Source: Candidatus Woykebacteria bacterium RBG_13_40_15 (GTDB lineage Bacteria; Patescibacteriota; Microgenomatia; Woykebacterales; RBG-16-39-9b). From it: a stretch of DNA of 32,058 nt. The translations under genes were made by a program, and so were the position numbers. The notes below the pieces were generated by a model. That model saw nothing but the letters and a program-made list of their open reading frames with translations. It was not told the origin of the DNA and did no database searches. Every line of letters starts with the position of its first letter. Position 1 is the first letter of the stretch. This document shows positions 1,753 to 27,775 of the stretch, piece after piece. The stretch covers positions 1 through 32,058 of the forward strand of contig MHCP01000019.1 in NCBI GenBank assembly GCA_001816655.1. Direction: 5' to 3'.

Positions 1753-2139
1753 ATGGTGAGCTACGCTAGGAAGACGGTCGAGGAGGAACTGAGGGAGGTC
1801 GTTTCGGGAGAGGAAAGCGACTCCCTAGTTGCCTTCCATGACAGGTTGAGGGCTTTCGCAATGAGGCACAGAACTGTTGCGATAGTCGGCGTCAGGAAAG
1901 GGGTGCGAGTGCAGCTTACCATCTCTAAGGATTCCACAGCCCTGAAGATAGGGAACCGGCTGGATCCCTTGGGTGACGAAGAGCTTAAGCGCTTTCTTGA
2001 CAACCCAGAGCGAGAAAACGTTGTGGAACGACTCGCGCACGATCTACTCGACGACCTATGGAGAATGCTCGCCGGCCAGGAGGTCGACGAACCCATTGTG
2101 GTGACAGTTGGTGTGAGTACACTTAACCTAGGTCGCTAG
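1753..2139 (+). CDS. Hypothetical protein (128 aa), GC-rich codon usage
   Basis: ORF preceded by strong SD (aaggaggg) and TTGACT / TAAACT promoter-like boxes near 1668-1697; composition differs from neighbours. Confidence 0.6.
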   Translation: MVSYARKTVEEELREVVSGEESDSLVAFHDRLRAFAMRHRTVAIVGVRKGVRVQLTISKDSTALKIGNRLDPLGDEELKRFLDNPERENVVERLAHDLLDDLWRMLAGQEVDEPIVVTVGVSTLNLGR

Positions 2140-4231: not shown

Positions 4232-4972
4232 ATGCTGGAAATCAAAGACGTCCGTGTCTCTTCCGATAGCAAGGAAATAGTTAGAGGAATTAATTTAAAG
4301 ATAAAGCCGGGTGAAATCAACATTTTAATGGGGCCAAATGCTTCTGGCAAATCAACTCTTTCGCTCGCTCTAGCTGGCCACCCTAACTATAAAATCACTT
4401 CAGGCAAAATTATTTTGGATAAAAAAGATATTACGAATCTAAACCCTGATAAAAGAGCAAAGCGGGGTTTGTTTCTGGGTATGCAATATCCTATTTCTGT
4501 CCCCGGTGTCTCGGTAGTTAACTTTCTTCGATCCTCATATCAATCTGTAAAAAACAAAAAGGCTGCGCCAAAAGAATTTATCGGTGTTCTGGACAGAAAA
4601 CTTCAAAGTTTCAAGTTCAACGAGAGCCTTTTGGAAAGAGAGGTAAATGAAGGTTTCAGCGGAGGAGAGAAAAAGAAATTTGAGATATTACAACTTGAAC
4701 TATTAAAACCAAAATACGCAATACTTGACGAACCTGATTCCGGCCTCGACATTGATGCACTGTCGGTTGTTGCCACCAAGATTAAACAGGCTGCAAAGGC
4801 AGGTACCGGAATACTTTTAATTACGCATTATCAGCGGATTCTGAAATATTTACCAATAGACTGCGTTCATGTACTTTTTGATGGAAGATTAATTGAAAGT
4901 GGCGGTCAAAAACTTGCCCAGGAGATTGAAAACAAAGGCTACAAATCGTTGGTAAAACAATATGGCAAATAG
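4232..4972 (+). CDS. sufC: Fe-S cluster assembly ATPase SufC
   Basis: ABC ATPase: Walker A GPNASGKST, signature FSGGEKKK, Walker B YAILDEPDSGLD; next to sufB. Confidence 0.95.
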   Translation: MLEIKDVRVSSDSKEIVRGINLKIKPGEINILMGPNASGKSTLSLALAGHPNYKITSGKIILDKKDITNLNPDKRAKRGLFLGMQYPISVPGVSVVNFLRSSYQSVKNKKAAPKEFIGVLDRKLQSFKFNESLLEREVNEGFSGGEKKKFEILQLELLKPKYAILDEPDSGLDIDALSVVATKIKQAAKAGTGILLITHYQRILKYLPIDCVHVLFDGRLIESGGQKLAQEIENKGYKSLVKQYGK

Positions 4973-11598: not shown

Positions 11599-12009
11599 AT
11601 GAAACTTCTTTACGCTTTGCTTTGTGACAATGCTTTTTTGTCCATCGATAAGAAAGTAAATATAATTGGGGTTTTTGAAACTATTGGGGCCTCTAAATTT
11701 CCAATAACTCACCCCAAGTTTGTTATCGTGGGTTCAATAGCTCCTGATAAGCGTAAATTCAAGATGAGTTTGAATATTGTCTCCGAAAAAAGCAAGGAAG
11801 CAATATTGGGAAATCTTCAGGAACGTGAGGTAAGCTTGCCCGAAGAAAGTAAAGATCAAAATTTCAATTTTATAATTGAAGTTGTCAACGCAAGCTTCAA
11901 TGAGCCAGGAATCTACAAAGTTGAAATTTCAATTGATGATAAAGTAGTAGGAGAAATACCGTTTAAATTAGTTGAAGGAAGTTTAAGTTCTGTTGGGTCT
12001 CCCTCTTAA
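11599..12009 (+). CDS. Conserved hypothetical protein (DUF6941-like)
   Basis: N-terminus MKLLYALLCDNAFLSIDKKVNIIGVFETI resembles the DUF6941 family. Confidence 0.6.
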   Translation: MKLLYALLCDNAFLSIDKKVNIIGVFETIGASKFPITHPKFVIVGSIAPDKRKFKMSLNIVSEKSKEAILGNLQEREVSLPEESKDQNFNFIIEVVNASFNEPGIYKVEISIDDKVVGEIPFKLVEGSLSSVGSPS

Positions 12010-12878
12010 AGCTCGCCAATCTTTATTGGTTCTTCCATTCTTCCTTGTATTAGATTTAAGTATTTTTCTGTAGTTGCTAGACGTTTGTGGCCGGCAAGTT
12101 TTGATACTAAAACTAAAGATGTTCCGGCCATCAGGTGATGGGCGACAAATGTGTGGCGAAGATCATTTACTTTAGCATTGCGTATTCCAGCCAGTTTAAA
12201 GTAGCGGTCAATTGCAGTTCTAATGTTTCTTACCAGAAGAGGTTTTCCGGTCTTTGTAATGAATAATGTTTCATTTTTACTTTCAGGACGGACATCCAGA
12301 TATTTTTTCAAAGAGGCTTCTGCGGCCTTGTTCAAAGGAACAGTTCTTTCAGGGTAGCTTTCACCAGCTGGGACATGCACTTCCCCTAGCTTGTTACTAG
12401 TACTAAAGTTTATATCCGCTAATTGCAATCGTGCCAGCTCACCAATTCGTATTCCCGTTTGAAGCAATAATTCTATAATTGCACCCATGCGAAAGTCCCC
12501 TCGAGCAGCGTCTCGGAGTGCTCGGTACTCTGTTTTTGATAAAATTCGAGGGGGTTTCATTTCAAACTTGGGGTGTTCAAGTAGAGAAGCGGGGTCGTCA
12601 GTAATGTAATCATTAATTTTCAAAAATCTAAAGAAAGTTTTTGTGGAATTTGTTTTTCTTGAAATACTCTTTGGGGTATAGCCTTCTTTTGAAAGCTTGG
12701 CCATAAAAGCCTGTAAGTCTTTAGTAGAAATGTCTTGAATACTTACCTTGTTCAATTGAGCCAAAAAGTCTCTTAGTTGCTCAATATCCTTACCATACGC
12801 TAAAACAGTCGCACTACTGCGGCCTTGACTTTTCAGGTGATCAATAAATTTTCCGTGGGCTTCATGAATTTTTGACAT
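12006..12878 (-). CDS. Tyrosine recombinase / integrase, XerC/XerD-like
   Basis: SAM-like N-domain; TGIRIGELARL, DLRHTFVAHHL, LAGHKRLATTEKYLNL catalytic motifs. Confidence 0.9.
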   Translation of the reverse strand: MSKIHEAHGKFIDHLKSQGRSSATVLAYGKDIEQLRDFLAQLNKVSIQDISTKDLQAFMAKLSKEGYTPKSISRKTNSTKTFFRFLKINDYITDDPASLLEHPKFEMKPPRILSKTEYRALRDAARGDFRMGAIIELLLQTGIRIGELARLQLADINFSTSNKLGEVHVPAGESYPERTVPLNKAAEASLKKYLDVRPESKNETLFITKTGKPLLVRNIRTAIDRYFKLAGIRNAKVNDLRHTFVAHHLMAGTSLVLVSKLAGHKRLATTEKYLNLIQGRMEEPIKIGEL

Positions 12879-19012: not shown

Positions 19013-19903
19013 TTAAGCAGTACGGGCGAATGGGGCGTAAACTCGAGTTGTCGATTGGCAGGCGTGACCCAGGAGTGCCTGAACGTTACGTAACGGAGCT
19101 CCCCCATTCAGCATATGGGTAGCGAAGCTGTGGCGCAAGGTGTGCGGGGTAACCGGCTTAGCGATTGCGGCGGCCTTTGCGTAGCCCTTCAGGATCAGCC
19201 AGAAGCCCTGCCGCGTCAGACGCTCCCCCCGCCGGTTGACGAAGAGGGCCGCTTGGTGCTTGTTACGCACCAGACGCGGCCGGCCGTCGTCCAGGTACTC
19301 CTCCAGCGCCTGGAGCGCGTCCTTGTGGATAGGGATCGTGCGCTCCTTGGACCCCCTTCCCACGCAGCGGATGTGGGGGACGCGCCGGTTCATGTGAAGG
19401 TGGTTCACGTCCAGAGACACCAGCTCGGTAACCCGCAGGCCGGTGGCGTAGAGCAACTCCAGCATCGCCTTGTCCCGTTTCGCCTCCGGTGTGACGAGAC
19501 GAGCCGGCTGCTCCAGGAGCTCGTCCACCTCGCGGATCGACAGCGGTTTGGGAAGGGACTTTGGGACCCGGAACCCTACGTTCTCGGTGGGGTTGTGCCC
19601 TACAATCCCTTCGACCTGATGGAGGAAAGCGAAGAATGCTTTCAGGCTGACTATCTTCCGGGTGACCGTCGCTGCCTTGTAGTGCCGTTCCTGCAACTCC
19701 GAAATATAGCCACGAATCAAAGCTTCGTCGACTTTATTCCAGGGTAGAGAGGTTCCATCAGCGTTGGTGGCAGTCCGAAGATATCCCCAGAGCTGATGAA
19801 GGTCAGCTTTGTAGGCTAGAGCTGTGTTATCAGCGAATAGCATTCTTTCCTGAATGTGCCTAAGAAATGCTGTGACTTCGACGTCCACAACTTGTGCAAT
19901 CAC
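19013..19903 (-). CDS. Tyrosine recombinase XerC/XerD-like, GC-rich
   Basis: ATGLRVTELVSLDV, HTLRHSFATHML, LLGHACQSTTRVY; GTG start with SD gggaggtgagcag. Confidence 0.9.
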   Translation of the reverse strand: MIAQVVDVEVTAFLRHIQERMLFADNTALAYKADLHQLWGYLRTATNADGTSLPWNKVDEALIRGYISELQERHYKAATVTRKIVSLKAFFAFLHQVEGIVGHNPTENVGFRVPKSLPKPLSIREVDELLEQPARLVTPEAKRDKAMLELLYATGLRVTELVSLDVNHLHMNRRVPHIRCVGRGSKERTIPIHKDALQALEEYLDDGRPRLVRNKHQAALFVNRRGERLTRQGFWLILKGYAKAAAIAKPVTPHTLRHSFATHMLNGGAPLRNVQALLGHACQSTTRVYAPFARTA

Positions 19904-20056: not shown

Positions 20057-22273
20057 ATGAAAAAATTAGTTTTAATTGACGGTCATGCAGTTTTTCACCG
20101 TGCTTACCATGCATTGCCCCCACTAACAACCTCAAAAGGTGAACTAGTAAACGCTGTTTTTGGATTCACTAGTATGTTACTTCGGGCAATTGCAGATATA
20201 AAACCAGACTATATTGCAGTCGCTTTTGATACTTCCGAGCCGACATTTCGCCACCAAGAATACACGGCCTACAAGGCCCAAAGAATTGTAGCTCCCGAAG
20301 AACTACACGAGCAAATGCCGAGAGCAAAAGAAGTTGTAGAGGCTTTAAATATTCCAATTTTTGAACTAGCGGGATACGAAGCTGACGATATTATCGGGAC
20401 TTTGGTAACTCAAAGTGCAAAATTCAACCCGCCTACCGGACGGGTAGGAACTCGAAACGATTTAGAAGTAATTATCGTTACTGGTGATAGGGATACACTT
20501 CAGTTGATTAGACCCGGTGTAAAAGTTTACTCGCCAGGTAAAAGCTTTTCTGATGTGGTTTATTTCGATCAAAAAATAGTAAAAGAAAAGTATGGTTTGG
20601 AACCGGCACAATTGATCGATTTTAAAGCGCTGGCTGGAGACCAAAGCGACAACATCCCAGGGGTTAGAGGGATAGGAGAAGTAACCGCAAAAAAACTTTT
20701 GCAAGGCTTTGAAAGTCTCGAAAATATTTACAAAAATCTTAATAAAATCCCAGAAAAGACCAGAAATTTGTTAGCTAAAGATGCTGAGGTAGCAGCGCTT
20801 TCTAAGAAATTGGCGACAATTGATGTTCAAACTCCGGTTAAATTAGATCTAGCAAAATGCGTCCTGAAAGACTATGACCAAAAGGCAGCGGAAGAGTTGT
20901 TTTTAGAACTTGAGTTTCGAAGTTTGATACCAAAGTTACCTGGGTTTAGCAAAAGTAAAGTTGCCGACAATCCAGCTGGTCAGGGAACCCTATTTGAAAA
21001 ACAAAAGGAAGAGGAAACAGGAAGAAGTGATGATTTGGAAAAAGTCCTGCGGGAAATGGAAAATTATGGTGTTTTAATCGATACTAAGAAACTCTCTAGC
21101 CTCGCAAAAGAAATCGACGGAAAGCTTTCTTCCTTGGAAAAGGAAATTTATAAGCACGTTGGCCACGAATTTAATTTAAATTCGCCAAAACAGCTTTCAA
21201 CCGTTCTATACGACGAATTAAACTTGACACCAGAGCGTTCGACCCGAATAAAGACCCATAAATCCACCGACGAAGCCACACTTTCGACCATGGTTGAGGC
21301 TCACCCGGTCATTGAGCCAATTTTGCAATACCGAGAGCTTTTTAAACTAAAATCCACCTATGTTGACGCGCTGCCAAACCAAATTGGCCAGGATGGCCGT
21401 ATTCACACCCATTACCACACTGATATCACGAGAACCGGCCGACTTTCTTCGAAGGATCCAAATCTACAAAATATACCAGCAAGAAGCGAGCTTGGGGAAA
21501 AGGTTCGTTCGGCTTTCATAGCACCGTCGGGTTGCCTTTTACTTTCCGGCGATTATAACCAGATAGAACTGCGCGTCATGGCACATATTAGTGGTGACGA
21601 AGCTCTAAAAAAGGTATTTGAAGAGGGCCAGGATATTCATACTGAAGCTGCCGAAGCTGTTTTAGGTAAAAAACACGGTGAGGTGACAAAAGAGGATCGT
21701 CGAATCGCAAAAATAGTAAATTTCGGCATAATGTATGGTATTTCTCCCTATGGCCTAGCTACGCAACTAAAAATTGAGCCTGCGGCCGCAAAAGAGATAA
21801 TAGACCGCTATTTTGAGCGTTTTCCAGGCGTCCGAGAGTGGGTAGGGGCGATACTGCGAGAGGCGTACGAAAAAGGCTTTGTAGAGACTTTGGGAGGCTT
21901 CAAGAGGTATGTGCTGGAGCTTCGAAGTAGCAACCAAACGGTACGCAGGCTTGGAGAGCGAGTTGCAGTAAACTCTCCAATCCAAGGCACAGCTGCGGAT
22001 ATTATTAAAAAAGCAATGGTCAATATCAGTAAGCAGTTAGCACCCGCCCGCCAGGCTTCGCCAGGCGAAGTGGGCGGGGAAAGCAGAAAGCAGACAAAGA
22101 TGATTTTGCAGGTGCATGATGAGCTAGTTTTTGAAGTACCGGAAGGTGAATTGAAAGAAGTTACCCCAATTATTAAAGACTGCATGGAAAACTGCTTTCC
22201 TCTCTCTATCCCGCTTGTTGTTGAACTTAAAGTGGGGAAGAATTGGGGAGAGATGAAACCTGTTGAAGTTTAA
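20057..22273 (+). CDS. polA: DNA polymerase I (5'-3' exonuclease + polymerase; no 3'-5' exonuclease domain evident)
   Basis: IDGHAVFHRAYHALP, VTGDRDTLQL; polymerase motifs DYNQIELRVMAHIS, RRIAKIVNFGIMYGIS, LQVHDELVFEVP. Confidence 0.95.
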   Translation: MKKLVLIDGHAVFHRAYHALPPLTTSKGELVNAVFGFTSMLLRAIADIKPDYIAVAFDTSEPTFRHQEYTAYKAQRIVAPEELHEQMPRAKEVVEALNIPIFELAGYEADDIIGTLVTQSAKFNPPTGRVGTRNDLEVIIVTGDRDTLQLIRPGVKVYSPGKSFSDVVYFDQKIVKEKYGLEPAQLIDFKALAGDQSDNIPGVRGIGEVTAKKLLQGFESLENIYKNLNKIPEKTRNLLAKDAEVAALSKKLATIDVQTPVKLDLAKCVLKDYDQKAAEELFLELEFRSLIPKLPGFSKSKVADNPAGQGTLFEKQKEEETGRSDDLEKVLREMENYGVLIDTKKLSSLAKEIDGKLSSLEKEIYKHVGHEFNLNSPKQLSTVLYDELNLTPERSTRIKTHKSTDEATLSTMVEAHPVIEPILQYRELFKLKSTYVDALPNQIGQDGRIHTHYHTDITRTGRLSSKDPNLQNIPARSELGEKVRSAFIAPSGCLLLSGDYNQIELRVMAHISGDEALKKVFEEGQDIHTEAAEAVLGKKHGEVTKEDRRIAKIVNFGIMYGISPYGLATQLKIEPAAAKEIIDRYFERFPGVREWVGAILREAYEKGFVETLGGFKRYVLELRSSNQTVRRLGERVAVNSPIQGTAADIIKKAMVNISKQLAPARQASPGEVGGESRKQTKMILQVHDELVFEVPEGELKEVTPIIKDCMENCFPLSIPLVVELKVGKNWGEMKPVEV

Positions 22274-22426
22274 TATCCGGGGAATAGATTGGACAAAATC
22301 AAAATTGTCCGACTTGTTCCGAGCTTGCCGAAGGGTATTTTAATAGTGAGTATAGTCGAATTATTTATACTGAGTTTTATCGAAGTATTGCAGCCTGATT
22401 GATAAAGCAGTAAAATTTCCCTGCCA

Positions 22427-24064
22427 ATGAGGCTTACTAAATCGTACAAGTTAAAAATCTTACCTACCAATGAGCAGGTTAAGTTCCTTGAAGATTATTT
22501 CTCAAGATTCGCTAAAGCGGTAAACTTCTATATAAGTAAAATTGGCTTGCTTCGAAAAGACTATGAGTGGCTATCTAAGGACAAGCAGAAAAAAGGAAAG
22601 TGTGCGAATTGTGGCCAAAATACCGATCTTAGTCACAAATTCCTGCCTGCTAACTCCTTAGTTTGCCCCCGCTGCTATAATTACGAAGTTGGCGACCTTT
22701 TTATTAGAAAAAAGCTATATGCAACCAGAATAGGCCCAAATAAAAGAAAAAGGGGCAGGTTTGATGTTCGAGATGCAACAAAATTGCCGGGGACGGATTA
22801 CGCCTTAGCCTTCAAGAGAGCAGCCGATACTATCAAGGGACAAAAGAAACAACTGGGAAAAGTCAAAAAGCAGCTAGTTTTTACAGAACGACGCTTAAAT
22901 GAATGGATTGAGGTGCTTGAAAATAAGGAAACCCTACTACAAGATGGCAAAAAAGCCCTAACAAGATTTACACTTCCTAAAAAACCAGGACAGAAAGTAG
23001 AAAGATTTAAGCACATCCTTTATAAAGACAACCCATCCCAAGGAAAAACAGAATCCCAGATCAAAGGAATAATCAAGGCTTTGGATAGGACTGTTCAAAG
23101 GCTTACTAAAAGGTTAAAAACTGCGGACATTAAATTCAATGGGGACATTGTTGATCTTCACTACTCAGCAGTAAAAAACATTATAGAAAAATTCACCGAA
23201 ATAAGCCTTGATTTAAAAAAGCAACAGTTTCCAATTGCAGCAGAAAATGTAGTTTCTAAGAAAAGTAGGGGTTGGATTATTGAAAAGATAAACGAGATGA
23301 AAAAGGGCAAACCCTTATATCCGCTTCTTCTGAAAAAGAAAAACGATTTTTACCTAAGCTACCCAGTCCGATTGGAGCTAGAAGAACCAAAAGAGGAAAA
23401 AGTCACTAAAGCAATGGGGATTGATCGGGGAGTAAATCAAATAGCTGTTACTGCAGTTATTGACAGGCCTACAGATAAACCTCATCATATTGAATTTTAT
23501 TCAGGAAAAGACTTAATAAAAAGCAAATTAAAATACCAGCTAATAAGGAAGAAATTTACTGGAACAAAAAGTGTTAATAAACGCAGGGCAAAATTTGGAG
23601 AAAAGGTAGCAAGGGGATCTATGTATGTTCTCCACGATATTTCAAGGCAGATAGTAAATCAAGCAAAAGAACAAAAACCAATTGTTATTGTTATGGAAGA
23701 TTTAAAAATGATTCAAGGCGAGAAAAGGGTGAAAAAAGGAAGTGCCGTGAGGGAAAGAAAAGTCAATTTTCTTCTCTCCAACTTTAACTATGGCCGATTA
23801 CAAAGTTTAATTAGTTATAAGGCTTTACAAGAGGGAATCCCAATTAGGTTTATAAAACCTGAATATACATCCCAAACCTGTTCAAAATGCAGGGAAATAG
23901 GCAAAAGGACTAAGGGGTTTTTTCAGTGCGTCAATCCAAAATGCAACCATAAAATGAATGCAGATCTCAATGCCGCCATTAATATTGCAAACTCATATTG
24001 TAAGGAAGATTCATTTACAAAAAAGCCAAAAAGTGCTATATTGCAAGCGACGACGAGCTCTTAG
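22427..24064 (+). CDS. Cas12f/Cas14-like (type V-F) RuvC nuclease of the TnpB/Cas12 superfamily
   Basis: RuvC-I MGIDRGVNQIAV, RuvC-II IVIVMEDLKM, zinc ribbon CSKC...CVNPKCNH, RuvC-III NADLNAAINIAN; extra N-terminal CANC...CPRC zinc finger; CRISPR-like repeats and anti-repeat immediately downstream. Confidence 0.8.
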   Translation: MRLTKSYKLKILPTNEQVKFLEDYFSRFAKAVNFYISKIGLLRKDYEWLSKDKQKKGKCANCGQNTDLSHKFLPANSLVCPRCYNYEVGDLFIRKKLYATRIGPNKRKRGRFDVRDATKLPGTDYALAFKRAADTIKGQKKQLGKVKKQLVFTERRLNEWIEVLENKETLLQDGKKALTRFTLPKKPGQKVERFKHILYKDNPSQGKTESQIKGIIKALDRTVQRLTKRLKTADIKFNGDIVDLHYSAVKNIIEKFTEISLDLKKQQFPIAAENVVSKKSRGWIIEKINEMKKGKPLYPLLLKKKNDFYLSYPVRLELEEPKEEKVTKAMGIDRGVNQIAVTAVIDRPTDKPHHIEFYSGKDLIKSKLKYQLIRKKFTGTKSVNKRRAKFGEKVARGSMYVLHDISRQIVNQAKEQKPIVIVMEDLKMIQGEKRVKKGSAVRERKVNFLLSNFNYGRLQSLISYKALQEGIPIRFIKPEYTSQTCSKCREIGKRTKGFFQCVNPKCNHKMNADLNAAINIANSYCKEDSFTKKPKSAILQATTSS

Positions 24065-24257
24065 CTATATGCTTCTAGAGTTTTGAAAGGACTGCGTTGC
24101 ACAGTAGTTAAAGTGGATTCGCTTTAGGTTTCGTCGCCGTTTAAAAGCGATGGGAAAGTTTTAGCCTTTTTAGACTAAACCGGCCTGATCACCACAATTC
24201 TTAGTTCTTCTTGCGGGGGTTTTAATCCGCGAATCTTGACAATCTTTATTCAAAAAG
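24065..24257 (+). ncRNA. Candidate tracrRNA / guide-scaffold RNA of the Cas12f-like locus
   Basis: Hairpin AAAGTG-GATT-CGCTTT at 24110-24125 resembling the Cas14a1 tracr stem; anti-repeat AATTCTTAGTTCTTC (24196-24210) pairs with repeat GAAGAATTAAGGAAT at 14 of 15 positions including G-U. Confidence 0.65.
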
Positions 24258-24366
24258 TAGGTTCGGCTTCTTAAGAAGAATTAAGGAATGCAACTCCTCC
24301 TTTTCTAGTTGTTCCCTTATATTTTTTAAGCAACAGAACCTCCTAGGAAGAATTAAGGAATGCAAC
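24258..24366 (+). CRISPR. Minimal type V-F-like array: repeat 24258-24294, spacer 24295-24329 (35 nt), repeat 24330-24366
   Basis: Shared 20-nt 3' core GAAGAATTAAGGAATGCAAC at 37/35/37 spacing; repeat 2 GCAACAGAACCTCCTAGGAAGAATTAAGGAATGCAAC matches my recollection of the Cas14a1 repeat at 26/37 aligned positions, including the GGAATGCAAC 3' end; repeat 1 is degenerate in its 5' half. Confidence 0.7.
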
Positions 24367-24706
24367 AAGTACTCTAGAAACTGAATAGTAGGTAAGGCCT
24401 AAAAACTTGCAGGCAAATAAGCAAAGTACTAAAATCCTCTTAAAATCGAACAGCTTTATCAGAAGTTGAGAAGAACTTTTTATTTTCTTGACACTCTATC
24501 CCATCAGCCCTAAAAGCCACATTACTCACTCTCAAATTCTTATTTCTGCTTCGCTCAAAGGGTCGTTTTTCTTTTTGGTAAAAATTCTATTTTAAAAGTT
24601 TGATTCTTAAAGATTGAATTTCCCGATAACTATTTCCACTTAATGTTAAAATTGTTTTAGAGATCGACCATCCGTCTGCTCGGATTAGTCATAGGAAGGA
24701 AGGCTG

Positions 24707-25540
24707 ATGAAGAAGAAACACTCGGATCTGCCGATCCAAAAAGTAGTTACGGCTCGAGGGTCGGTGGTTAGCTATATTGAGAAGGGCGAGGGGCCACCCC
24801 TCATCATAGTCCCGGGCCTTTTCCAGAATGTCAATGGGCTGCGACATCTCATCATCGAATTGTCGCAACACTTTCGGGTGATTTGCTTAGCAGTACCAGG
24901 CAGTGAGGGCTCTAGCTTTCTTCCTGCCTACACCAATGAAGCAATTGGAAGATGGGTCGAGGAAGCGCTTGAGTCTTTGGGGGTCCGAAAGGCGTTGTTC
25001 GTCAGCGTATCGCTCGGAGCGATACTAGTTGTGTCGGGTATCGTTGCTTTCAAGCGGGTGAAAGTATTGGGCTATGTAGCACACGAGCCTGTTACCCGGC
25101 TTACCCATACCCGGGTTTGGTGGAGACTGCTTTATCAGACGAACCGACTCCTTTACGAAAGGAGGCTTGGCTTCTTGTCCCTGACGATGATCTGGGTCAT
25201 AAGATTCGTCCTGGCCCACGTTTTTCGCCAGGGCTTCGCTCGAGCGCTTCTGGGAACTCCAGTGCGAGTCTTTCCACCAATGGGAGACGTACTGAGCGAG
25301 CAGCCAACGGATGAGCTGGCAGTAGCGGCCGCCAAAAAAGTCCCAACGCTGGTTGTACTATCAAGTGAAAGAACCAGGGGCCTGATTGAGCAGGAACAAA
25401 TGATGCGGGCAGTTGGACGGATGAGCGTGGTGGGTCTTGAAACTCTCAGCGGGGCTAAACACTTTCTCCGTCGAGAAGACCAGCGGAACTTGGCAAGGCA
25501 TGTTGTCGGGTTTGCTCGGAGGCGCAGGGTTATACTCTGA
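24707..25540 (+). CDS. Alpha/beta hydrolase-fold protein, GC-rich
   Basis: GEGPPLIIVPGLFQNVNGLRHLI, nucleophile-elbow-like FVSVSLGA, catalytic-His-like GAKHFLRRE; SD aggaagg. Confidence 0.7.
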   Translation: MKKKHSDLPIQKVVTARGSVVSYIEKGEGPPLIIVPGLFQNVNGLRHLIIELSQHFRVICLAVPGSEGSSFLPAYTNEAIGRWVEEALESLGVRKALFVSVSLGAILVVSGIVAFKRVKVLGYVAHEPVTRLTHTRVWWRLLYQTNRLLYERRLGFLSLTMIWVIRFVLAHVFRQGFARALLGTPVRVFPPMGDVLSEQPTDELAVAAAKKVPTLVVLSSERTRGLIEQEQMMRAVGRMSVVGLETLSGAKHFLRREDQRNLARHVVGFARRRRVIL

Positions 25541-25557
25541 CGTGAAAATCCGCCTTT

Positions 25558-25605
25558 GTGGCCGTCTCGAACCTTCTAGGTGAGGGACGGCCATCTGGTT
25601 TATCC
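25558..25605 (+). terminator. Hairpin terminator after alpha/beta hydrolase
   Basis: TGGCCGTC ... GACGGCCA 8-bp inverted repeat followed by TCTGGTTT. Confidence 0.55.
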
Positions 25606-25618
25606 TAAAAATTCTAGT

Positions 25619-27775
25619 TCAAATCAGTGAAGCTCTTACAATTAGGCGGGAGTCGAGTTTGCCTACTGGCCAGCAGGTCATTAAAGTAACTACTTCGTTA
25701 TCAGTTGGATCCAGCACACTTACATCTGTTTTCCCCACTACTTTCCGCTCCGTTACGGAATAATTAAATTTCTGACCCTCTTTGACTAAAGTTAACCTGT
25801 CTCCAGGCGACAGATTAGAAATTTTTGAAAACTCATAGGCATAATAAGGAGCTGCTTGCGTACCATCTGTGGAATGGCCAAATATAAAAATATTGCTACC
25901 TTGTCCGGGCAGGGCAGTTCCTTTATAATGCCCAAGCCCAGTTCCGAGCGGAATAGCGTAACCTTCTTTACTAGCCCCATCTACATTTTCAGTGATTGGA
26001 ACTTTTAAGCCCAGCTTCTCAATGTATAAGCCAAATTTTTGGAAATTTTTGTCAATAACAGCTTGGGCTGGTTTAGGCGGACTTTCAGCCGCGGCTGCTT
26101 TTGGGGGACCATGATTAGCAGTGCTATTTATTCCGCCGCTTAATACTAGAGCAAGGGAGGAAAATATAATAATGGTTAAAAATACACGGCCAAGTAAACG
26201 TATATTATGCACCGACTTCTTTGCTGTTAATTTCTTCAAATTTCCGTATTTCCAAAAATTAAATGCAGCTAGACAAGTTAAAAGAATAGTTAGCATAATT
26301 AGGTCACGATTTGTTGATGCCTGATTAGTTCCCCGTACACCAGTTTCCGGCAGGCCCGTCGAGACTCCCATGACAAAAGTTTTGTCGTACGTTTGGGCCG
26401 GAAAACCACCGTCGGTTACTCTGACAGTAAAGGTGTAAGAGGAATTGTGAGTTGGTATCCCATAAATTAAACCAGAAGAAGAAAGAGAGAGCCCTGGTGG
26501 TAGGGAGCCGCTTACCAAACTAAATGTGTAAGGAGATGTGCCGTATGATTCATCAAGACTGACCGAATAACTTCTGCCGATTAAAGCAGCAGGCAAAGTC
26601 TGGTTGTTGGTGATGCTAAGAGTGGGAAGTTCTTCTGATCGCCATATCTGTAAACAACCGACTAGATTCGAATTCGAAAAGCCGGCGTAAATGCGACCTT
26701 TAAAAAAAGTTAGAGCATATAGAGCATAATTATATTGGTCGCCAAATCCATCCTCTCCCATTTGGGTTGCATCTACGCCATCAGTAACCCAAAGACCGGC
26801 ACTACCAGTGGATACCCTTGTTCCAGAGTAGGCCACGCTGTTGACAATTGTCGGTTGGAGAGAAGGCCAAATGTTGGGTAAAGTGTCAAACTCGCCAGTC
26901 AAATTAACTTTTGACCAACTTTCTCCACCGGTGCTATAATAAAGCTCCAAGCCGTCAGTATTGTTTTCGGTCCCAGCGTAAAGAACACCTAAATAAGATA
27001 CAATTACGTACACACCATCGTTGTTAGTATTACCCAAGCCCCCACTACCGACTTGTGTCCAATCCGTGCCATTTGAAGTACGGTAAATTGAAGCGCCATC
27101 CGTGGAGTCCTCCGTACCGGCATAAAGATAATTTCCAAAGGAATATAACGTCATAACCCCCGTATCATTTGCACTTAAATCATCAACTGCAACTTTCTCC
27201 CAGTCGGTACCGTTTTGCGTTCTCCAAATTTGCCCACCAGTTAGTTTTCTAGTGCCAGCATATAAATACCCGTTAAAAATCTCTAAGGCGACAGTTTGGT
27301 AATTATAAAAAACCGGATCAGCTTCAAAACCTGCTCCGACAACGTCGACCCAGGTTTCCCCATCGCTACTTCTTAAAACTTCAGCCGGCTTGGAAATATC
27401 ATCAGAACCAGTAGCGGCATAAAAATAGCCGCCAAACTCTTCCAAATCTAAAACGTAGTGATCATCATTACTGAAAGAAGCTACTTCGCTCCAAGTACCA
27501 GTATCTCCGGTAGAACTTTTATAGATTGAAGCACTACCAGTAGCGGGATTGCCTACACCGGCGTAAAGAGTGTTATTAAAAATTCCAAATCGCAAATGCA
27601 CATCTCTTCCGTTAAGTCCGCTATCGTCTACTACTTTTTCGAAGTTTAAGGAAGGAGGGGAGATAATATAAGCTTTTGTGGGAGAGGGCAAAAACAAAGC
27701 TAATATGCCTATGGGTAAAGCAAAAAAGACGATGAGAAATAATAACTTATTTTCTAGAGCAGCGAATTTTTTCAT
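25619..27775 (-). CDS. Secreted propeller-like + Ig-like repeat protein with internal LPETG sorting signal fused to a C-terminal sortase domain
   Basis: Repeated YAGT...WRTSNGTDWTQVG blocks; LPAALIGRSYSVSLDESYGTSPYTFSLVSGSLPPGLSLSSSGLIYGIPT (putative Ig); LPETG (26339-26353) + TM + KK; sortase IFGHSTDG, TLMTCWP, SRLIVRASL. Confidence 0.85.
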   Translation of the reverse strand: MKKFAALENKLLFLIVFFALPIGILALFLPSPTKAYIISPPSLNFEKVVDDSGLNGRDVHLRFGIFNNTLYAGVGNPATGSASIYKSSTGDTGTWSEVASFSNDDHYVLDLEEFGGYFYAATGSDDISKPAEVLRSSDGETWVDVVGAGFEADPVFYNYQTVALEIFNGYLYAGTRKLTGGQIWRTQNGTDWEKVAVDDLSANDTGVMTLYSFGNYLYAGTEDSTDGASIYRTSNGTDWTQVGSGGLGNTNNDGVYVIVSYLGVLYAGTENNTDGLELYYSTGGESWSKVNLTGEFDTLPNIWPSLQPTIVNSVAYSGTRVSTGSAGLWVTDGVDATQMGEDGFGDQYNYALYALTFFKGRIYAGFSNSNLVGCLQIWRSEELPTLSITNNQTLPAALIGRSYSVSLDESYGTSPYTFSLVSGSLPPGLSLSSSGLIYGIPTHNSSYTFTVRVTDGGFPAQTYDKTFVMGVSTGLPETGVRGTNQASTNRDLIMLTILLTCLAAFNFWKYGNLKKLTAKKSVHNIRLLGRVFLTIIIFSSLALVLSGGINSTANHGPPKAAAAESPPKPAQAVIDKNFQKFGLYIEKLGLKVPITENVDGASKEGYAIPLGTGLGHYKGTALPGQGSNIFIFGHSTDGTQAAPYYAYEFSKISNLSPGDRLTLVKEGQKFNYSVTERKVVGKTDVSVLDPTDNEVVTLMTCWPVGKLDSRLIVRASLI

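What the first reader, a model, noticed from the sequence alone, without database searches (positions are those of the whole stretch)
24065..24294. Possible natural single-guide: tracr-like scaffold runs directly into a degenerate repeat and then a guide
The region has an AAAGTG-GATT-CGCTTT hairpin, several further short hairpins and an anti-repeat AATTCTTAGTTCTTC (24196-24210) complementary to the repeat core. Next comes AGGTTC (24259-24264), complementary to GAACCT in the 5' half of repeat 2 (24336-24341). The order is antiparallel-consistent with a Cas14a1-type tracr:repeat duplex. Repeat 1 starts inside this region and has lost the canonical 5' half, so tracr, repeat 3' half and the 35-nt guide could be one continuous transcript, an omegaRNA-like arrangement intermediate between TnpB and Cas12f.
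Basis: inference. Interest (0 to 1): 0.85.

Follow-up and report, generated by a model that had tools for sequence, protein, structure and literature searches.

The report
Trimmed Cas12f CRISPR locus, tracrRNA-repeat fusion
This is a small Cas12f (Cas14b-like) CRISPR locus in a reduced bacterial genome in which a deletion has joined the helper-RNA gene directly to the first repeat; that could give a naturally fused guide RNA, but a related bacterium keeps the ordinary layout, so it looks like a worn-down copy of a known system rather than an ancestral intermediate.

Summary
ORF 22427-24064 is a Cas12f2/Cas14b-like nuclease, followed by a tracrRNA and a two-repeat array. The one close homologue found (G019: cas1-cas2-cas4-cas12f2-tracrRNA-array; 60% identical effector) aligns along the whole tracrRNA and through AGGTTC. 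There the window lacks about 58 nt: the leader plus the first 10 nt of repeat 1. So the tracrRNA-repeat fusion is real, but most simply a derived deletion. The "intermediate between TnpB and Cas12f" reading is not supported. The anatomy also needs correcting. The true anti-repeat is 24194-24223 and pairs with nearly the whole of repeat 2. AGGTTC alone is no better than chance (P about 0.25). CGCTTT pairs 20 nt downstream (three compensatory changes), not with the local AAAGTG. A loop GTTGCA complements the repeat's TGCAAC end, as in Un1Cas12f1. A promoter-like site ends 7 nt before the tracrRNA, and no promoter- or terminator-like site lies between it and repeat 1 in either locus, so one transcript is likely. 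The 26 nt kept of repeat 1 include the part used by Un1Cas12f1, so a working fused guide is possible but unproven. The genome has no Cas1.

The parts
22427..24064 (+). cas12f2/cas14b-like effector gene, 545 aa; motifs MGIDRGVNQ (D333), MEDLK (E424), MNADLNAA (D513) and a C4 zinc ribbon
   Evidence: PADLOC Cas12f 267 bits / Cas14b 246.7; NF049972 CRISPR_Cas12f2 388.9 bits, curated cut-off 450; 60% identity to G019; motif positions
24014..24042 (+). promoter-like site TTTACA-N17-TATATT with TG before the second hexamer, just upstream of the tracrRNA
   Evidence: 10 of 12 matches; G019 has TTTACA-N18-TAAATT in the corresponding position. The scan finds no more sites than shuffles, so position and presence in both loci are the support
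24050..24224 (+). tracrRNA scaffold (3' end uncertain; conservation with G019 runs to 24264)
   Evidence: 74% identity to G019 over 24049-24264 against 42% just upstream; 27 tested pairs stand 27/27 in the window and 26/27 in G019 with 6 double changes, against at most 1 in slid controls
24055..24083 (+). stem I
   Evidence: two compensatory changes between window and G019 in the outer helix
24091..24105 (+). stem II; loop GTTGCA (24096-24101) complementary to repeat 3' end TGCAAC, equivalent of stem 3 / AR:R1 in Un1Cas12f1
   Evidence: sequence; one compensatory change; PMC8053092
24119..24150 (+). stem III, TCGCTTT (24119-24125) with AAAGCGA (24144-24150), three compensatory changes
24052..24135 (+). 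pseudoknot 24052-24057 with 24130-24135
   Evidence: 6/6 pairs in both loci, two pairs with a one-sided change
24194..24223 (+). anti-repeat, pairs with nearly the whole repeat
   Evidence: 27/30 pairs with repeat 2, 25/30 with truncated repeat 1, 26/30 in G019; z -5.7, -3.9 and -4.9
24259..24264 (+). AGGTTC, last block homologous to G019 before the deletion junction
   Evidence: 6-nt complement to repeat 2 not significant
24269..24294 (+). repeat 1, truncated: 26 of 36 nt kept
24295..24330 (+). spacer 1 (35-36 nt)
   Evidence: no other copy in the genome or 7 relatives with up to 3 mismatches over 23 nt
24331..24366 (+). repeat 2: complete 3' end, diverged first bases
24367..24412 (+). possible former spacer 2 followed by TTGCAG (24407-24412), which resembles the first 6 nt of a repeat; weak

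Best explanation
A type V-F CRISPR-Cas locus closest to Cas12f2 (Cas14b), reduced to effector, tracrRNA and a two-repeat array. A deletion of about 58 nt (relative to the homologue G019) removed the leader and the first 10 nt of repeat 1. The tracrRNA is probably transcribed from its own promoter at about 24049 and reads straight into repeat 1 and spacer 1. Its anti-repeat folds back on the truncated repeat 1 in cis, and stem II's GUUGCA loop can clasp the repeat's UGCAAC end. The result is a Cas12f guide aimed by spacer 1 at DNA with a T-rich PAM, used either after trimming or as a fused guide. New spacers could probably not be added, because the leader-repeat junction and Cas1 are missing. 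Shown: effector identity, tracrRNA homology and compensatory pairing, anti-repeat complementarity, the junction, canonical repeats in G019, no Cas1. Inferred: deletion as the direction of change, promoter, one transcript, cis use, PAM, continued activity.
For: Effector family. Homologue G019 with cas1, cas2, cas4, the same tracrRNA and a canonical array. End-to-end tracrRNA alignment and the exact junction. Compensatory changes with slid control. Anti-repeat energies against shuffles. Promoter-like sites placed alike in both loci and no terminator-like site before repeat 1. No Cas1 and no other repeat copies in the window's genome. In Un1Cas12f1 only 17 nt of repeat are in the guide and AR:R2 can be removed (PMC8053092, PMC8763643). 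The tracrRNA between nuclease gene and repeats is the known Cas12f2 layout (PMC7229846).
Against: Only one close homologue was found, so the direction of change (deletion in the window) rests on parsimony and on the known Cas12f layout. The effector is below the NCBIfam Cas12f2 cut-off (388.9 against 450). No RNA data. The promoter scan has no power beyond its placement. The metagenome assembly of the junction cannot be checked against reads.
Confidence: 0.78

Rival explanations
1. A true natural single guide: the fused tracrRNA-repeat-spacer is kept by selection and used uncut, fixing Cas12f on one target.
For: Fused junction. Cis anti-repeat/repeat 1 duplex is in the minimum-energy fold and far better than shuffles (z -3.9). 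A single spacer with no Cas1 fits a fixed guide. Lab-fused Cas12f guides work (PMC8763643).
Against: No transcript data. No target found in the genome or its relatives. The same cis pairing is possible in the unfused G019 locus. Repeat 2 pairs with the anti-repeat better than repeat 1 does. No second locus shares the fusion.
Confidence: 0.2
2. A decaying relic: leader, most of the array and the adaptation genes are lost, and the locus no longer defends.
For: Two repeats only, no Cas1, diverged 5' ends in both repeats, leader gone, and no relative of the same family has the gene.
Against: The effector frame is intact with its catalytic motifs. The anti-repeat of the window still pairs 27/30 with repeat 2, and changes against G019 are compensatory.
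Confidence: 0.3
3. An omegaRNA-like evolutionary intermediate between TnpB and Cas12f.
For: Guide RNA lies directly 3' of the nuclease gene in one possible transcript.
Against: Cas12f2 score three times the TnpB score; closest relative has cas1-cas2-cas4 and canonical repeats; spacer is flanked by a second repeat; the tracrRNA seems to have its own promoter.
Confidence: 0.03
4. Assembly artefact at the tracrRNA/repeat 1 junction.
For: Contig of a 36-contig genome of unstated origin, probably metagenome-assembled; repeats nearby.
Against: The junction lies in the leader and inside repeat 1, and the flanking tracrRNA is unique. A repeat collapse would remove whole repeat-spacer units, not 58 nt of leader (inference).
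Confidence: 0.05

Closest known systems
Type V-F2 CRISPR-Cas12f2 (Cas14b; Mi1, Mi2 and Au Cas12f2 of PMC7229846)
   Same: Effector family; tracrRNA between nuclease gene and repeats in the same direction; spacers of about 36 nt
   Different: First repeat truncated and fused to the tracrRNA, no leader, no adaptation genes, one or two guides
Un1Cas12f1 (Cas14a1) guide RNA (PMC8053092)
   Same: A stem whose loop pairs with the repeat-derived part of the crRNA (AR:R1), a tracrRNA anti-repeat that pairs with more of it (AR:R2), repeat ending GGAATGCAAC (Un1 repeat sequence from memory)
   Different: The window's anti-repeat duplex is far longer and contiguous; Un1 single guides are artificial fusions
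S. pyogenes tracr-L (PMC11417352)
   Same: Precedent for a natural single-guide RNA made from a tracrRNA gene
   Different: Cas9, made by an alternative promoter, represses its own cas promoter; here the guide is a spacer and no self-target was found
Type V-K CAST att-site guide with truncated crRNA (PMC11406308)
   Same: A truncated repeat with a dedicated guide
   Different: Cas12k transposition system in which that guide is set apart from the array; in the window no transposon genes were seen and no self-target was found

Membership tests
Type V-F CRISPR-Cas (Cas12f2/Cas14b) | Cas12f-family effector, about 400-700 aa, with RuvC D/E/D and C-terminal zinc ribbon | tested here: met
   the NCBIfam Cas12f2 curated cut-off itself is missed (388.9 against 450), as it is by G019
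Type V-F CRISPR-Cas (Cas12f2/Cas14b) | tracrRNA with anti-repeat next to the array | tested here: met
Type V-F CRISPR-Cas (Cas12f2/Cas14b) | CRISPR array of direct repeats with unique spacers | tested here: met
   Two repeats with one spacer between, minimal; the homologue has six repeats (the last degenerate) and five spacers
Type V-F CRISPR-Cas (Cas12f2/Cas14b) | Cas1/Cas2/Cas4 (present in many loci, not required for the subtype) | tested here: not met
   No Cas1 in G000, present in G019; Cas2 and Cas4 found in G019, not searched genome-wide in G000
Type V-F CRISPR-Cas (Cas12f2/Cas14b) | RNA-guided DNA cleavage with T-rich 5' PAM | not testable with these tools
   needs biochemistry
TnpB/omegaRNA (IS200/IS605) | Guide is flanking DNA beyond the transposon end; no CRISPR repeats | tested here: not met
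   spacer lies between two repeats
TnpB/omegaRNA (IS200/IS605) | Effector scores as TnpB rather than Cas12f | tested here: not met
   131.7 against 388.9 bits
Natural single-guide RNA | tracrRNA, repeat and guide contiguous in sequence and able to pair in cis | tested here: met
Natural single-guide RNA | Transcribed and used as one uncut RNA | not testable with these tools
   needs RNA end mapping

The most novel reading that the evidence does not exclude
A Cas12f locus that became single-guide in nature: after losing leader and Cas1, the tracrRNA fused to one repeat-spacer and now makes one encoded sgRNA with a fixed target.
Probability: 0.18. Interest if true: 0.72.

Novelty: new member of a known kind. 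Interest (0 to 1): 0.42.

Why it matters
If the fused RNA works uncut, nature reached by one deletion the same sgRNA design that engineers made for Cas12f, and the pair of loci (fused in the window, split in G019) would be a ready-made test of how much of the tracrRNA-repeat duplex Cas12f needs. If not, it documents how a type V-F locus loses its leader and adaptation genes in a reduced genome. Either way the compensatory changes give a comparatively supported scaffold for a Cas12f2-type tracrRNA.

Tried and rejected
More homologues were sought: protein and Cas12f2-profile searches of the class (385 genomes), the phylum (389) and relatives (142 and 385; the last returned essentially the class set again); the family and order of G019 (one genome each); genome and viral contig scans; a repeat pattern in viral contigs (47 contigs with a single match each, no array). 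Only G019 is a close relative; weaker hits in G049 and G170 cover only the C-terminal part. Phage and plasmid hits listed are 26-35% identical TnpB-like segments. Rfam gave nothing in the window and one sub-threshold sroH match in G019 outside the tracrRNA. AlphaFold with two sequences gave mean pLDDT 41 and was not used. A spacer target in the genome or seven relatives: none. Two viral 17-19-nt matches to spacer 1 were not taken as a target. A codon-based test of selection failed because synonymous change is saturated (NG86 gave no dS); differences concentrate at third codon positions (0.585 against 0.311 and 0.226). A tree was not built because there is only one close relative.

Full report
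Observation. The region follows a 545-aa ORF (22427-24064) whose best family matches are Cas12f in PADLOC (267 bits; Cas14b 247) and CRISPR_Cas12f2 in NCBIfam (388.9 bits, below the curated 450), against 131.7 bits for the TnpB family. The RuvC motifs (D333, E424, D513) and a C4 zinc ribbon are intact. Downstream lie two repeats, 24269-24294 (truncated) and 24331-24366, with a 35/36-nt spacer between them.

Homologue. One close relative was found, in G019 (same class, 60% protein identity). Its locus is cas1-cas2-cas4-cas12f2 (Pfam), then a tracrRNA and six repeats TTGCAGAACCTCTTAAGAAGAATTAAGGAATGCAAC with spacers of 36-39 nt; the last repeat has lost its TGCAAC end. The window and G019 align from window 24049 to AGGTTC at 24264 (74% identity; 42% just upstream). 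Then the window lacks about 58 nt of G019 sequence, the rest of the leader and the first 10 nt of repeat 1, and rejoins at the 26 nt TCTTAAGAAGAATTAAGGAATGCAAC, identical in both. The simplest reading is a deletion in the window's lineage that fused tracrRNA and repeat 1. This rests on one homologue and on the published Cas12f2 layout, where a putative tracrRNA lies between the nuclease gene and the repeats (PMC7229846).

RNA anatomy. I tested helices by asking whether they stand in both loci. Stem I (24055-24083), stem II (24091-24105), stem III (24119-24125 with 24144-24150) and a pseudoknot (24052-24057 with 24130-24135) give 27 pairs, 27 standing in the window and 26 in G019, with six pairs changed on both sides; sliding the 3' partners by 1 to 3 bases gives at most one such pair and at most 17 standing. 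The loop of stem II, GTTGCA, is complementary to the repeat's terminal TGCAAC, matching the published AR:R1 contact made by the loop of stem 3 in Un1Cas12f1 (PMC8053092). The main anti-repeat, 24194-24223, pairs 27/30 with repeat 2, 25/30 with truncated repeat 1 and, in G019, 26/30 with its repeat. The energies beat all of 500 shuffles in each case. G019's 9-nt AAGAGGTTC at the aligned place is less so (P = 0.007) and might form a leader-repeat hairpin of the kind described for Cas13 arrays (PMC13187072); that is inference.

Transcription. A promoter-like site (TTTACA-17-TATATT) ends 7 nt before 24050, where homology to G019 begins, and G019 has a similar site in the same place. The scan finds no more sites than shuffled DNA does, so the shared position is the only support. 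Neither locus shows a promoter- or terminator-like site between the tracrRNA and repeat 1. A perfect TTGACA lies at 24237-24242, but its best partner hexamer, TAGGTT, matches only 3 of 6 (read by eye). One transcript is therefore likely in both loci, fused or not. The minimum-energy fold of 24050-24314 pairs anti-repeat and repeat 1 in cis, and so does that of G019. So cis pairing is not special to the fusion; the fusion shortens the linker and removes the leader.

Would it work? In Un1Cas12f1 the guide contains only 17 nt of the repeat, removing AR:R2 only moderately lowers cleavage (PMC8053092), and removing the whole complementary region even raised editing (PMC8763643). The window's repeat 1 keeps 26 nt, so the lost 10 nt are probably not needed. 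Transfer from Cas12f1 to Cas12f2 is inference. New spacers can probably not be added at this locus: the leader-repeat junction is gone and the genome (97.6% complete) has no Cas1.

Target. Spacer 1 has no second match in the genome or seven relatives. Its first 19 nt match a microvirus contig with terminal redundancy (L074, Phage_F capsid), inside what reads as the replication-protein gene (read by eye), with a T-rich flank ATTTTA; a second contig matches 17 nt outside its listed ORFs; a reversed-pattern control and spacer 2 gave none. In a collection of that size one 19-nt match is not convincing.

Evolution. The close relative with adaptation genes and canonical repeats, and the Cas12f2 score, make the window a reduced type V-F locus, not a TnpB-Cas12f intermediate. 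The locus is patchy: none of six genomes of the same family has it, and in three of them polA is followed by a second mutM-like gene instead, directly in two and after about 2 kb in G003.

Verdict. A real tracrRNA-repeat fusion in a trimmed Cas12f2-like locus. Use as a natural single guide is possible (about 0.2) and directly testable. The ancestral reading is not supported.

Noticed in passing
24295-24330; L074 positions 31-51 and 4487-4507: The PAM-proximal 19 nt of spacer 1 match a microvirus (ssDNA phage) contig behind a T-rich flank (ATTTTA). Reversed control and spacer 2 gave no match, but one 19-nt match in so large a collection is weak.
   Followed up: partly
22043-22080: GC-rich palindrome (CCCGCCCGCCAGGCTTCGCCAGGCGAAGTGGGCGGGG) lies in frame inside polA; looks like a REP-type element inserted in a coding region.
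   Followed up: no
19013-19903 (-) and 12006-12878 (-): Two tyrosine recombinase (XerC/D-like) genes in one 32-kb window, the first about 2.5 kb upstream of cas12f2 (Pfam on the first; the second by eye).
   Followed up: no
24407-24412 and 24435-24442: TTGCAG and CCTCTTAA, both also found in the repeat, downstream of repeat 2: possible remains of a third repeat; repeat 2 keeps the TGCAAC end that G019's last repeat has lost, so it may not have been the original last repeat.
   Followed up: partly
22273-27775: Between polA and mutM the window carries cas12f2, an alpha/beta hydrolase and a large sortase-like ORF; three relatives have a second mutM-like gene after polA there.
   Followed up: partly
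L006 positions 1979-2060 (- strand): G019 leader contains AAGAGGTTC, a 9-nt complement to GAACCTCTT of its repeats (P = 0.007): possible leader-repeat hairpin in a type V-F array.
   Followed up: partly
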